Part shown: positions 3,306 through 18,105 of the stretch, in pieces | How positions within the stretch are numbered: position 1 is the stretch's first letter | How the letters are laid out: each line of letters starts with the position of its first letter | Origin: Deltaproteobacteria bacterium GWA2_45_12 | GTDB taxonomy: Bacteria; UBA10199 | Assembly (NCBI GenBank): GCA_001797365.1 | Contig: MGPH01000004.1 | Coordinates: 1 to 37,545 of the forward strand | Direction: 5' to 3' | DNA: 37,545 nt | Notes under the pieces: generated by a model | Databases searched by the model: none | What the model was told of the DNA's origin: nothing | The model's input: the letters and a program-made list of their open reading frames with translations, nothing else | Made by a program: the position numbers and the translations under genes

Positions 3306-4439
3306 TCAATAAAATGGCCGTGACAATTCCTCTACGGCATCCAAAGAACGCAGATTACCCTCAAATCCCAATTTTGAGGCCTCTCCGACCAATTGGTACG
3401 CCTTTGTGGGTTTGAGTCTGTTGGCAAAATAAGCAAGGGATGGCGATACGACACCATCACTTAATTTGGCTTCAATGAGCTCATCAACCTTGCCGTCTTT
3501 TAAAATGACAAAATCAACCTCGTGGCCCTCCTTGTCACGGACATATCTTAATTCATAGCGATAACCTTCGTAATCTTCCATGAACTGGTTTTTTTTGAGC
3601 AGGTGGTTTGCCACCAGGTTTTCAAACCTCACACCTTCATCCCCTTCGACATCGGCATTATCATAAAAATAAATTTTTGGCGGTTTCCGAATGGCGCGAG
3701 CCATATTTTTTGAGTAGGGCCAGACACAAAATAGGACATACATTTTTTCCAAAATTTCAATCCAGTGCCTGATTGTTTTTGGGGATACAAACAATTCCTC
3801 GGCCAGATTTGAAAACACAACCATCCCCCCCACGCGCGTTTTTAGTTTGTCAAGAAGCAGCCCCATGGTGGTAATTTGCGTAACGGCTTCCAAGTCACGC
3901 ACATCATCCTTCAAGATTTTATCCTGACGTTCGCGACGCCAGCGTCGTGCTTCACGTTCGTTATTGTCCAAAAACGGTTCCGGAAAACCACCAACACTCA
4001 AGAGCCTTTTATAGGTTTCTTTTTTGCCGATGCCTTTTGGAATTTCAGACAAGGTGAATGGATGCAACCGCCAATAGTGATAACGGCCCATCATGGAGTC
4101 GCCTCCCCGTCGATAAACGTCCAGACGGGCGCTGCCTGTTACCAAAAAGTTATGACTGTTTTTCTGGGTATCGTAGAGTCCTTTTAACCAATTCTTCCAT
4201 CGTGAATATTTGTGAATTTCGTCCAATACAATCAGGCGGCTATCAGGATGAAACTTGCGTTTAAGGATGTTTTGCCGGTCCTGGTCATCATCCCAATTGA
4301 AATAATTGTATTCGTCAACCGATGTTGCTTGTTTAAGAATCCGTTTAGCAAGGGTTGTTTTACCGCATTGACGAGGCCCCCCTATAAAAACCATCTTCTT
4401 TTGCAGATCTTTTTGAATGTATTTGTGCAGGTAACGCAT
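3306..4439 (-). CDS. AAA-type ATPase with DUF4143 domain (first copy)
   Basis: 377 residues. Walker A is GGPRQCGKTT at residues 20-29 and Walker B LIVLDE at 69-74, followed by sensor-like LVTGSARLDVYRR. The middle (about 195-245) holds a winged-helix-like segment (NLAEELFVSPKTIRHWIEILEKMYVLF). The C-terminal DUF4143 part has EVDFVILKDGKVDELIEAK, a pattern resembling PD-(D/E)XK nuclease cores. The family is common in bacteria and archaea and its cellular role is unsettled. The gene stands alone on the minus strand. Two tandem palindromes begin 2 bp before the ATG and occupy the place of a normal ribosome binding site, suggesting self-regulation. A second, divergent copy lies at 14984-16135. 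Confidence 0.85.
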   Translation of the reverse strand: MRYLHKYIQKDLQKKMVFIGGPRQCGKTTLAKRILKQATSVDEYNYFNWDDDQDRQNILKRKFHPDSRLIVLDEIHKYSRWKNWLKGLYDTQKNSHNFLVTGSARLDVYRRGGDSMMGRYHYWRLHPFTLSEIPKGIGKKETYKRLLSVGGFPEPFLDNNEREARRWRRERQDKILKDDVRDLEAVTQITTMGLLLDKLKTRVGGMVVFSNLAEELFVSPKTIRHWIEILEKMYVLFCVWPYSKNMARAIRKPPKIYFYDNADVEGDEGVRFENLVANHLLKKNQFMEDYEGYRYELRYVRDKEGHEVDFVILKDGKVDELIEAKLSDGVVSPSLAYFANRLKPTKAYQLVGEASKLGFEGNLRSLDAVEELSRPFY

Positions 4440-14763: not shown

Positions 14764-14973
14764 ATTTTCTCCTTGTCGCGCCAAAGCCCAACGGGCGTCG
14801 GCGAACTTTTTTAGAGCCGCCCTTCACTTCGTCCACCCTTGAACCAAGAAAGATGCGAACCTGGCCCTAGCTAAAGCAACCCTAATGCCAAGAAGAAAAA
14901 TTAAAAAAGTATAATAATTTCAGTTATTTATGATAAACAAGGAAAATGGGAAGAAAAGGTCTATCGAAGATTA

Positions 14974-15000
14974 TCGAAGATTGTTAACGGGGATTGGCGA
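14974..15000 (+). repeat. 27-bp direct repeat, left copy
   Basis: Starts TCGAAGATTG and ends GGATTGGCGA; perfectly repeated at 16211-16237. It overlaps the ATPase 3' end and encodes its last residues (IANPR and stop). A short tandem ATCGAAGATT lies next to it (14963-14982). Confidence 0.9.
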
Positions 15001-16135
15001 TGAACTCACCGTCCCACAACTGATCTAAAAACATGGTCCAGGGAAGTATTTGGATCTTGCCGATTGTTCTGGGTTGTTTTTCAAGACAAACAATAATGGC
15101 TTTTTTAACAGGGCCATCTTCAAGAAGGGCCTTAAGACCTTTTAAATCTCCTTGGTGAACACGCAAGCTGGCCTTAATCTCGAGGGCCAATTGCTTTTCA
15201 TTTAAAATGAAATCCACTTCTTGATTCGTACTGGTCCTCCAAAAACTGATTTCCAATTCAGGTTGATGATAAGCCCGGTAAGCCATCAGTTCCATGAGAA
15301 TATATTGTTCAAACGATTTGCCAAACTCGGGAGTGCCCATCTGGGGGCTGCGTCTTGCAAGGTAATTGGAAACACCTACATCAAAAATATAGAATTTTTC
15401 GGTCTCAATCATTCGGCGGTTTTTTGATTTCACCCAGGGCTTAATCCGAAATCCGAGGTAAGTGTCTTCAAGAATATCAAAGTAAGTCCTTACCACTTTT
15501 GGGGAAATACCCGCTTCCCTTCCAACATTGGTGTAATTAAGAAGCTCACTGCTGGTAAGGGCAGCCACCCTTAAAAAATCGCTGAAAGCCGGGATATTTT
15601 GGGTGAGCGCCTCCGCTGCAATTTCCTCTTTAAGGTAATCGGCCAGATAGGCCCTTAAGTCTTCAATAGGGTCCGGAGACAAAAAATGGGAAGGAAGCAA
15701 TCCACTGACCATGATTTTCTCAAGGTCAAGCGAGTCAACTTCCTTGTAAGACAGGGGAGCCATATGCCTCTTCCAGGCGCGCCCTCCAAGGAGATTGGCA
15801 TGGCCACGTTTAAGCTTACGGGCGCTGGAGCCTGTCAAAAGAAAAGAAACCTTTTTATTTTCGATAAGCCAGTGAACTTCATCCAAAAGCGAGGGCACTT
15901 TTTGGATTTCATCGATGACAACAAGCCCTGTGTGGTCTTGAAACCTTTCCCGCAAGAGGGCGGGACGAGAGGAGTAATCCGCAAATTCATCTGTCTTAAG
16001 TAAGTCAACAAGGGGAACCTCTGGTAAATTTTGGCGGATCCAGTAGGTCTTTCCCACCTTCCGGGGTCCCCACAAAAACGCTGACTTACCCTTGGGCAGA
16101 TTGAGCTCAAAAAGTCTTTTAATAATCTTCCCCAT
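14984..16135 (-). CDS. AAA-type ATPase with DUF4143 domain (second copy)
   Basis: 383 residues with Walker A GPRKVGKT at 23-30, Walker B GLVVIDEIQ near 70-77, sensor-like FLLTGSSARKL, a winged-helix-like middle (TNVGREAGISPKVVRTYFDILEDTYLGFR) and the C-terminal DUF4143 core NQEVDFILNEKQLALEIKAS. It shares architecture with the 3306-4439 protein but is clearly divergent, so the two did not arise by recent duplication. Remarkably, the gene lies exactly between perfect 27-bp direct repeats, the left copy covering its last codons. An inverted repeat lies 17 bp before its start. Role unknown; a mobile cargo or defence-like unit is possible but not shown. Confidence 0.87.
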   Translation of the reverse strand: MGKIIKRLFELNLPKGKSAFLWGPRKVGKTYWIRQNLPEVPLVDLLKTDEFADYSSRPALLRERFQDHTGLVVIDEIQKVPSLLDEVHWLIENKKVSFLLTGSSARKLKRGHANLLGGRAWKRHMAPLSYKEVDSLDLEKIMVSGLLPSHFLSPDPIEDLRAYLADYLKEEIAAEALTQNIPAFSDFLRVAALTSSELLNYTNVGREAGISPKVVRTYFDILEDTYLGFRIKPWVKSKNRRMIETEKFYIFDVGVSNYLARRSPQMGTPEFGKSFEQYILMELMAYRAYHQPELEISFWRTSTNQEVDFILNEKQLALEIKASLRVHQGDLKGLKALLEDGPVKKAIIVCLEKQPRTIGKIQILPWTMFLDQLWDGEFIANPR

Positions 16136-16151
16136 AAGGGGAGATTATCCG

Positions 16152-16180
16152 GATAAAATGACATCGTCAATCATTTTATC
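16152..16180. promoter_or_regulatory. Inverted repeat upstream of the second ATPase
   Basis: Perfect 10-bp arms GATAAAATGA / TCATTTTATC with a 9-bp centre. The position is analogous to the palindromes ahead of the first DUF4143 gene, though sequence differs. Operator role is inferred. Confidence 0.4.
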
Positions 16181-16210
16181 TACCCCCCCTTTTTTTAATT
16201 TAGAAAACTG

Positions 16211-16237
16211 TCGAAGATTGTTAACGGGGATTGGCGA
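16211..16237 (+). repeat. 27-bp direct repeat, right copy
   Basis: Identical to 14974-15000 at all 27 positions; the flanking bases differ on both sides. Confidence 0.9.
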
Positions 16238-16247
16238 AAGTTGGTCG

Positions 16248-16289
16248 CTGAGCGGAGTTGAAGCGTACCGGCCCTTCGGCTCCGCTCAG
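16248..16289. repeat. CTGAGCGGAG hairpin repeat
   Basis: Perfect 10-bp arms CTGAGCGGAG / CTCCGCTCAG around a 22-base loop with its own GGCCCTTCGGC. It lies 7 bp beyond the ettA stop, so it may work as its terminator. It resembles the GAGCG/CGCTC repeat at 20166-20210. Confidence 0.6.
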
Positions 16290-16296
16290 GGACCTG

Positions 16297-17985
16297 TCAT
16301 TCTCTTTTCAACTTTTTATACTTAATCCGCCCCAGCTTATCGGCGGCATCGCCCAAGCGACGGTGTTTATCGGCTTCGTATTCGGAAAAATTGCCGTCAA
16401 ACCACACCACTTGGCTATCGCCCTCAAAAGACAGCATGTGGGTTGCAATACGATCCAAAAACCAACGATCGTGGCTGATGATGACGGCACATCCACCAAA
16501 ATTTTCGAGGGCTACTTCCAACGCACGAAGGGTGTTCACATCCAAATCATTGGTGGGTTCATCCAAAAGCAAAACGTTTCCCGCATCTTTTAAGGTCATG
16601 GCCAAATGCACACGGTTCCGTTCCCCGCCAGAAAGCACATTGATGGGCTTTTGCTGGTCGGTGCCTGAAAAATTAAACCGCGCCACATAGGCTCGTGAAT
16701 TGACTTCACGACTGCCAAGCTTGACCACCTCGGCTCCGCCAGAAATAACTTCCCATACCGTCCGTTTGTCATCCGGGCTGAACCTGTTTTGATCAACATA
16801 CCCAAGCTTGACAGTTTCCCCCACTTTAAAAGAACCGCTGTCGGGTTTTTCAAAACCCATAATCATTTTAAACAATGTCGTTTTACCGGCTCCATTGGGA
16901 CCAATGACCCCTACAATTCCGCCCTGAGGGAGACTGAAACTTAAATTCTCAAACAAGAGTTTGTCACCGTAGGCTTTTGAAATATTCCGGGCTTCGATGA
17001 CTGTTTCCCCCAAACGTGGGCCGGGGGGAATATAAATTTCAATATCCTCGGCCAGTTTTTCATTTTCCTGGGAAAGAAGTTTTTCGTAATTGGAAATACG
17101 CGCTTTCGATTTTACACGACGGGCCTCCGGGCTCTGTCTAATCCACTCCAATTCCCGTTCCAATGTCTTGACGCGTTTGGTTTCAGCCTTTTCTTCCTGG
17201 GCCAGGCGATCTTTCTTTTGAACCAGCCAGGACGAATAATTGCCCTTCCAGGGAATGCCTTGCCCACGGTCTAATTCCAAAATCCAACCTGCCACATTGT
17301 CCAAAAAATAACGGTCGTGGGTCACTGCAATGACTGTGCCCTTGTACTTTTGTAGATGGCGCTCAAGGAAAAAAACAGATTCGGCATCCAAATGGTTGGT
17401 GGGTTCATCCAAAAGTAAAATATCGGGCTCGCGCAATAAAAGCCGGCACAGGGCCACACGACGTTTTTCACCCCCTGAAATATTTTTGACAAGCGCATCG
17501 GACGGGGGACAACGGAGCGCATCCATGGCCAGTTCCAAGCGGTTATCCAGCTCCCAGGCATTGGCGGCATCCAGCTTTTCCTGTACCACCCCCTGACGGT
17601 CGATAAGCTTAGCCATTTCGTCATCGGACATGGGTTTTTCAAAACTATTATTGATCGTTTCAAATTCCTTGAGCAAATCGACTACTTCCTGCACACCCTC
17701 TTCAACGACTTGGCGCACTGTTTTTTCAGGATCTAAATGGGGCTCTTGTTCCAAATAACCAATGGAATAGTCTTTTGAAAAAGTGACCTGGCCCGTGTAA
17801 TCTTTGTCAACCCCGGCAATAATTTTTAAGAGACTTGATTTCCCGGCCCCGTTTAACCCCAGCACCCCGATTTTAGCGCCATAAAAAAAGGAAAGATAAA
17901 TATCCTTTAAGACCTGCTTTTTGGGAGGATGAACGCGGCTGACTCCCACCATGGAAAATATGATTTTTTCATTTTCGTTAGCCAT
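16297..17985 (-). CDS. ettA: ABC-F ATPase EttA (translational throttle)
   Basis: 562 residues from ATG 17985 (MANENEKIIFSMVGVSRVHPPKKQVLK); a longer frame to 18087 has no family support. It has two ABC domains: Walker A GLNGAGKSS and GPNGAGKTT, signatures ISGGEKRR and LSGGERNR, Walker B LLLDEPTNHLD and LLLDEPTNDLD. Between them is the linker region (LERELEWIRQSPEARRVKSKARISNYEKL) with the EttA-type arm. EttA binds the ribosomal E site and gates early elongation according to ATP/ADP level. The close match of whole blocks such as HDRYFLDNVAGWILELDRGQGIPWKGNYSSWL makes this secure. The stop TGA falls in AATGACAGGTC, resembling a remnant of the livF-type palindrome. Confidence 0.96.
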   Translation of the reverse strand: MANENEKIIFSMVGVSRVHPPKKQVLKDIYLSFFYGAKIGVLGLNGAGKSSLLKIIAGVDKDYTGQVTFSKDYSIGYLEQEPHLDPEKTVRQVVEEGVQEVVDLLKEFETINNSFEKPMSDDEMAKLIDRQGVVQEKLDAANAWELDNRLELAMDALRCPPSDALVKNISGGEKRRVALCRLLLREPDILLLDEPTNHLDAESVFFLERHLQKYKGTVIAVTHDRYFLDNVAGWILELDRGQGIPWKGNYSSWLVQKKDRLAQEEKAETKRVKTLERELEWIRQSPEARRVKSKARISNYEKLLSQENEKLAEDIEIYIPPGPRLGETVIEARNISKAYGDKLLFENLSFSLPQGGIVGVIGPNGAGKTTLFKMIMGFEKPDSGSFKVGETVKLGYVDQNRFSPDDKRTVWEVISGGAEVVKLGSREVNSRAYVARFNFSGTDQQKPINVLSGGERNRVHLAMTLKDAGNVLLLDEPTNDLDVNTLRALEVALENFGGCAVIISHDRWFLDRIATHMLSFEGDSQVVWFDGNFSEYEADKHRRLGDAADKLGRIKYKKLKRE

Positions 17986-18077
17986 AAGGGTATTAGGGCA
18001 TATCAAAACTGGTAGGGTAAGAAAGCTTTTTTTTATGATGAGTGAAGAAAAAGACGATTCAGAATGCTCCAATGCAA

Positions 18078-18105
18078 GTAAGGGCAATTCATGAATTGCC
18101 CCTAC
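18078..18105. repeat. 28-bp palindromic element, AATTCATGAATT centre
   Basis: Arms GTAAGGGCAATTCA / TGAATTGCCCCTAC, one mismatch. Near-identical copy at 25656-25683. It lies between ettA and the porin gene. Confidence 0.85.

What the first reader, a model, noticed from the sequence alone, without database searches (positions are those of the whole stretch)
14974..16237. DUF4143 ATPase gene exactly bracketed by perfect 27-bp direct repeats
The repeats at 14974-15000 and 16211-16237 are identical, and the left one forms the gene's last codons and stop. This is the pattern of a discrete inserted or excisable unit, or the scar of a tandem duplication that lost one copy. DUF4143 ATPases are widespread and patchy, with no settled function, so a mobile single-gene cassette would be new.
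Basis: partly seen in the sequence, partly recalled or inferred. Interest (0 to 1): 0.78.

Follow-up and report, generated by a model that had tools for sequence, protein, structure and literature searches.

The report
Single-gene cassette flanked by target repeats
A one-gene DNA cassette has been pasted between two unrelated genes and left a copied stretch of target DNA on each side; the same mark surrounds about one in ten genes of this family, and of an unrelated family (Fic) in related bacteria, so small genes seem to move one at a time by a route that does not depend on which gene is carried.

Summary
The 27-bp direct repeats are real, exact and found nowhere else in the genome. They bracket only the DUF4143 ATPase gene and its promoter. 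In 23 of 222 DUF4143 genes from many phyla, unrelated sequences of about 20-273 bp are repeated at the same two places (mostly 40-130 bp before the start, and near the stop codon), against 1 of 287 other ORFs; windows shifted off the gene gave 0 of 920. Several repeats are duplicated ends of neighbouring genes. Related genes in unrelated contexts share DNA only from about 45-90 bp before the ATG to the stop codon. Alleles lacking the gene were found in congeneric genomes and rhizobial plasmids; one shows exactly this unit replacing 27 bp of target. So the 'inserted unit' reading is supported. A mobility special to DUF4143 is not: Fic genes in the same genomes show the mark at the same rate (7/64), and AbiE and DUF234 examples exist. 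Best explanation: gene-independent insertion of one-gene fragments at two offset target positions, giving a duplication or a deletion, possibly by illegitimate or homology-facilitated recombination. DUF4143 is the phage-defence candidate PDC-S01. Excision, donor molecule and mechanism remain unshown.

The parts
15001..16210 (-). inserted unit between the repeats: promoter region plus all but the last codons of the DUF4143 gene
   Evidence: the same unit limits recur in other loci
14984..16135 (-). AAA_14 + DUF4143 ATPase gene (383 aa), matching phage-defence candidate PDC-S01; Walker A/B and PD-(D/E)XK-like residues E276, D308, E319, K321 invariant in 45 relatives
14974..15000 (.). copy of the 27-bp target repeat at the gene's 3' end; supplies the last codons and the stop
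16211..16237 (.). copy of the 27-bp target repeat upstream of the gene's promoter
14966..14973 (.). imperfect extension of the repeat (pairs with 16203-16210); whole match 35 bp at 91%
16136..16202 (-). upstream region of the gene, with a TTGACG -35-like hexamer at 16165-16170 (sequence reading)
   Evidence: conserved upstream blocks in relatives
16152..16180 (.). inverted repeat in the promoter: arms GATAAAATGA 16152-16161 and TCATTTTATC 16171-16180; overlaps the palindrome TTATCCGGATAA at 16145-16156
   Evidence: upstream palindromes are enriched in DUF4143 genes

Best explanation
The window holds a one-gene cassette (promoter plus DUF4143 ATPase gene, about 1.2 kb) that was inserted between an ABC-F type gene and a gene for a probable lipoprotein (the latter identification is inferred). 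The two ends of the incoming DNA were joined to target positions that overlapped by about 27-35 bp, so that stretch is now present on both sides and the target supplies the last codons and stop. SHOWN: a recurrent insertion pattern with defined unit limits, alleles without the gene, and the same mark at genes of an unrelated family. INFERRED: the process does not depend on the gene carried. Single genes arrive on short DNA (uptake, conjugation or plasmid transfer) and are captured at an offset break or by illegitimate or homology-facilitated illegitimate recombination; the offset gives a duplication (about 20-273 bp) in some cases and a deletion (27 or about 205 bp) in others. Insertions that keep the neighbouring gene's end and the cargo's own promoter survive. 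DUF4143 is probably the passenger that benefits, as a defence or selfish gene, rather than the machine.
For: Tight brackets: 17/167 DUF4143 loci, then 6/55 in a later set tested with the same criterion, against 1/287 control ORFs (Fisher p = 4e-8). In-register windows score >=30 at 30/208 loci; windows of equal spacing shifted by 600-1200 bp give 0/920; cross-locus null 12/5000. Several repeats are ends of neighbour genes read as phoU, truA, lpdA, gatD and SMC. DNA shared between unrelated contexts or phyla ends at about -42..-93 and near the stop (e.g. L104/L108/L110 from differently labelled lineages, L026/L027 at 91.5%); the Agrobacterium/Rhizobium plasmid unit is -79..+25. Alleles lacking the gene: L035 in G020 versus G009, insert -64..+4 replacing 27 bp; truA locus G021 versus G043; rhizobial tra region, about 205 bp of target missing; Aminobacter repC; homology to other genomes resumes at +5, +13 and +24 or stops at -66. 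In L026 the two copies evolved as expected for one functional and one free copy. Gene independence: Fic 7/64 tight, 8/59 in register versus 0/296 shifted; an ORF counted there as 'other' (L455) also reads as a Fic gene; AbiE module L413; DUF234 ATPase L337.
Against: About 90% of the loci show no surviving repeat, so most cases rest on unit limits or on nothing. No allele lacking the gene was available for the window site itself. Random capture does not readily explain why the unit ends so near the promoter and the stop codon in many loci; larger brackets exist but are fewer. In L016 and L106 the two copies look like diverged orthologous gene ends (mostly synonymous differences), which implies later transfer between species or a homologous arm rather than a simple target duplication. 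A conserved neighbour in putative donors, expected from homology-facilitated transfer, was not found. The repeat criterion was chosen after seeing the first loci; the 55-locus set and the Fic set came later. Most genomes are metagenome assemblies.
Confidence: 0.62

Rival explanations
1. DUF4143 is a self-moving element: its AAA+ ATPase with a PD-(D/E)XK nuclease recognises its promoter palindrome, cuts the target with long offsets and inserts its own gene.
For: Nuclease-like and ATPase residues invariant; palindromes strongly enriched upstream (mean score 7.5 versus 4.9, p = 5e-26); no same-strand neighbour stop codon closer than 33 bp upstream in 77 loci, while many control ORFs have one; defined unit limits; many copies per genome and spread over phyla.
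Against: Fic genes, a family without this nuclease domain, carry the same bracketing repeats at the same rate (7/64 versus 23/222, p = 0.82); AbiE and DUF234 examples. No shared terminal sequence seen and no fixed duplication length.
Confidence: 0.15
2. An unknown transposase or integrase acting in trans moves these gene units.
For: Defined limits and target duplications in more than one gene family.
Against: No inverted repeats pair the two ends of the window unit; duplication length varies from about 20 to 273 bp and deletions occur, unlike known DDE, serine or tyrosine recombinases.
Confidence: 0.1
3. The repeats are the scar of a tandem duplication, or of gene conversion, at an old resident gene.
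For: Direct repeats can arise this way (general knowledge).
Against: Repeat sequences differ at every locus and several are neighbour-gene ends; relatives lack the gene altogether.
Confidence: 0.04
4. Chance or a dispersed repeat.
For: A dispersed palindrome family lies next to the right copy (16243-16294).
Against: The 27-mer occurs only twice in the genome; the repeat pairs of four further DUF4143 loci in the same genome are essentially confined to their loci.
Confidence: 0.01

Closest known systems
PDC-S01 phage-defence candidate (DUF4143 / AAA_14 ATPase)
   Same: The protein matches the PADLOC PDC-S01 models (E 8e-56); single gene; ATPase fused to PD-(D/E)XK; multiple transfers across domains reported (PMC12988326).
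   Different: The passages read treat it as a candidate defence gene; they do not describe unit ends, bracketing repeats or insertion sites.
Homology-facilitated illegitimate recombination (HFIR)
   Same: Small linear DNA integrates by homology at one end and illegitimate joining at the other (PMC3240628 abstract); could give duplications or deletions beside a gene end.
   Different: Here the cargo is one gene with nearly constant limits, and no donor-side homologous arm could be shown.
Insertion sequences
   Same: Small unit, one gene, target duplication.
   Different: No transposase domain, no inverted ends, variable duplication length, deletions also occur.
Free-standing homing endonuclease genes
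   Same: Single gene with a nuclease-like domain, spread by transfer.
   Different: Sites differ between close relatives and no site specificity is seen; Fic genes behave the same.
Integron gene cassettes
   Same: Single-gene mobile units.
   Different: These carry their own promoter and are flanked by target sequence (attC not searched for).

Membership tests
DUF4143 / PDC-S01 | AAA_14 plus DUF4143 domains over the curated cut-offs | tested here: met
   (112.8 and 74.6 bits)
DUF4143 / PDC-S01 | match to PADLOC PDC-S01 models | tested here: met
DUF4143 / PDC-S01 | PD-(D/E)XK-like catalytic residues kept | tested here: met
DUF4143 / PDC-S01 | anti-phage activity | not testable with these tools
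   validation described as pending for most such candidates (PMC12988326)
Insertion sequence | transposase encoded in the unit | tested here: not met
   only AAA_14 and DUF4143 found
Insertion sequence | terminal inverted repeats | tested here: not met
   no inverted pair joins the ends 15001 and 16210
Insertion sequence | fixed-length target duplication | tested here: not met
   about 20 to 273 bp, and deletions
Integrase-driven element | integrase within the element and a constant att core | tested here: not met
   no integrase in the unit; repeat sequence differs at each locus
Homing endonuclease gene | fixed, conserved insertion site | tested here: not met
   repeat-marked sites differ even among relatives 72-76% identical to the window protein
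Integron cassette | attC site | not tested
   no attC model was run
HFIR product | one end joined by homology with the donor's neighbouring gene | tested here: inconclusive
   L016 and L106 copies look like diverged orthologues, but no donor with the same neighbour was found

The most novel reading that the evidence does not exclude
An undescribed, gene-independent process moves single promoter-to-stop gene units between bacteria, taking them almost exactly and inserting them with variable target duplications or deletions; PDC-S01 and Fic genes are two of its cargoes.
Probability: 0.25. Interest if true: 0.9.

Novelty: new variant of a known kind. Interest (0 to 1): 0.68.

Why it matters
PDC-S01 is reported as the fourth most common defence across prokaryotes (PMC12988326), yet how such single genes reach so many genomes is not described in the passages read. 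A footprint visible in the sequence (repeat pair at promoter and stop codon, plus the allele without the gene) turns this into a countable event: insertion sites, offsets and donors can be surveyed for any small mobile gene. It also warns that candidate defence genes found by their neighbourhood may be grouped by how they move as well as by what they do.

Tried and rejected
DUF4143-specific mobility: favoured at first, set aside after the Fic, AbiE and DUF234 controls. Stop-codon targeting: convergent stop-stop gaps do not differ clearly from controls. Phage carriage: only 2 relatives found by the scan of 2.9 million viral contigs and 6 of 50,697 phage records. Thermus plasmids: no clean empty site; HB8 carries what looks like an internal deletion of the HB27 gene, not an empty site. 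Agrobacterium pyc site: composite context, no clean empty allele. Thirteen plasmid loci checked for bracketing repeats had no tight pair. Search of the class for alleles of the best repeat loci: only 46 genomes are held, none close enough to give a full empty allele. A tblastn with an invented N-terminus found nothing. Conserved neighbours in possible donors: none convincing.

Full report
OBSERVATION. The 27-bp copies at 14974-15000 and 16211-16237 are exact, and the match extends to 35 bp at 91%. The genome holds only these two copies with up to 3 mismatches. The enclosed gene (14984-16135, minus strand) is a 383-aa AAA_14 + DUF4143 protein. It matches the PADLOC candidate PDC-S01, described in PMC12988326 as an ATPase fused to a PD-(D/E)XK domain, with experimental validation pending for most such candidates. 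E276, D308, E319 and K321 are invariant in 45 relatives. The repeat copy at the gene's 3' end supplies the last codons (ANPR-stop), beyond the LWxGE end typical of relatives.

RECURRENCE. Among 167 DUF4143 loci from this class and from many phyla, 17 are bracketed by direct repeats of unrelated sequence, the left copy ending 40-260 bp before the start and the right copy beginning within -25 to +65 bp of the stop, against 1 of 287 other ORFs. A later set of 55 loci gave 6 more. With windows in register 30/208 loci score >=30; with windows of equal spacing shifted by 600-1200 bp, 0/920. Four other DUF4143 genes of the same genome have repeat pairs that are essentially confined to their loci. Caveat: the criterion was chosen after the first loci had been seen; the 55-locus set and the Fic set were tested afterwards.

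WHAT THE REPEATS ARE. Several are duplicated ends of neighbouring genes: phoU (L034), truA (L016), lpdA (L114), gatD (L106), an SMC gene (L258), a PIN-domain gene (L098), and the start of a nuclease-like gene (L026) (gene names are my reading of the translations). In L026 orthologues indicate that the left copy took amino-acid changes and the functional right copy mainly silent ones, as expected for a duplication made on the spot. In L016 and L106 the copies look like diverged orthologous gene ends, which points to later transfer between species or a homologous arm.

UNIT LIMITS. DUF4143 genes in unrelated contexts share DNA from about -42..-93 to about the stop codon, and the Agrobacterium/Rhizobium plasmid pair from -79 to +25. 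In a congeneric pair, G020 carries exactly -64..+4 where G009 has 27 bp of target. Other congeneric comparisons break at +5, +13, +24 and -66. The rhizobial tra region lacks about 205 bp of target at the insertion, and Aminobacter repC plasmids without the gene have an unrelated 265-bp spacer in its place. The truA locus of G043 lacks the gene present in G021. So the two joints can overlap (duplication) or leave a gap (deletion).

CONTROL THAT CHANGED THE READING. Fic genes in the same genomes show the same mark: 7/64 tight brackets, 8/59 in register against 0/296 shifted, and an ORF scored there as 'other' (L455) also reads as a Fic gene. The rate equals that of DUF4143 (p = 0.82). One AbiE module (L413) and one DUF234 ATPase (L337) show it too. 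The insertion process is therefore probably not a property of the DUF4143 protein.

OTHER FEATURES. DUF4143 genes are not found close behind a same-strand neighbour (no upstream stop codon nearer than 33 bp in 77 loci, while control ORFs often have one) and carry strong palindromes upstream; in the window GATAAAATGA-9-TCATTTTATC at 16152-16180 and TTATCCGGATAA at 16145-16156. These fit an autonomously regulated gene. The genes are almost absent from viral contigs and phage records.

VERDICT. The claim that this is a special DUF4143 mobility, or an excisable one, is not. Which process joins the ends is open: offset-break capture and homology-facilitated illegitimate recombination are the nearest known kinds, and the near-constant unit limits are what they explain least well.

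Noticed in passing
window 3306-4439 (-): A second AAA_14 + DUF4143 gene in the window; its promoter holds a 30-bp palindrome (GACCATTTTGGAGTGCTCTCCAAAATGGTC) and a second similar one, but it has no bracketing repeats.
   Followed up: partly
window 16243-16294: GC-rich inverted repeat next to the upstream repeat copy; a dispersed family with about 20 similar places in the genome.
   Followed up: partly
window 14963-14982: Small tandem duplication ATCGAAGATT ATCGAAGATT overlapping the start of the repeat copy at the gene's 3' end.
   Followed up: no
L184:1689-1692 (Thermus thermophilus HB8 pTT27): HB8 has what looks like an internal deletion of the DUF4143 gene that is intact in HB27, with a 4-bp overlap at the joint.
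   Followed up: partly
L377, L380, L389, L368, L437, L436, L447, L455: Fic genes bracketed by direct repeats, the same mark as at DUF4143; this became the main control.
   Followed up: yes
L337 and L413: A DUF234-type ATPase (65-bp repeat) and a two-gene AbiE module (49-bp repeat) bracketed in the same way.
   Followed up: partly
L159, L137, L067, L141: Larger brackets whose right end again lies near a DUF4143 stop codon while the left end lies 0.6 to 3.5 kb upstream.
   Followed up: no
L277 and window 16297-18087: A distant DUF4143 relative in another genome lies about 13 bp from the end of a gene related to the window's ABC-F type neighbour; possibly a shared insertion site.
   Followed up: no
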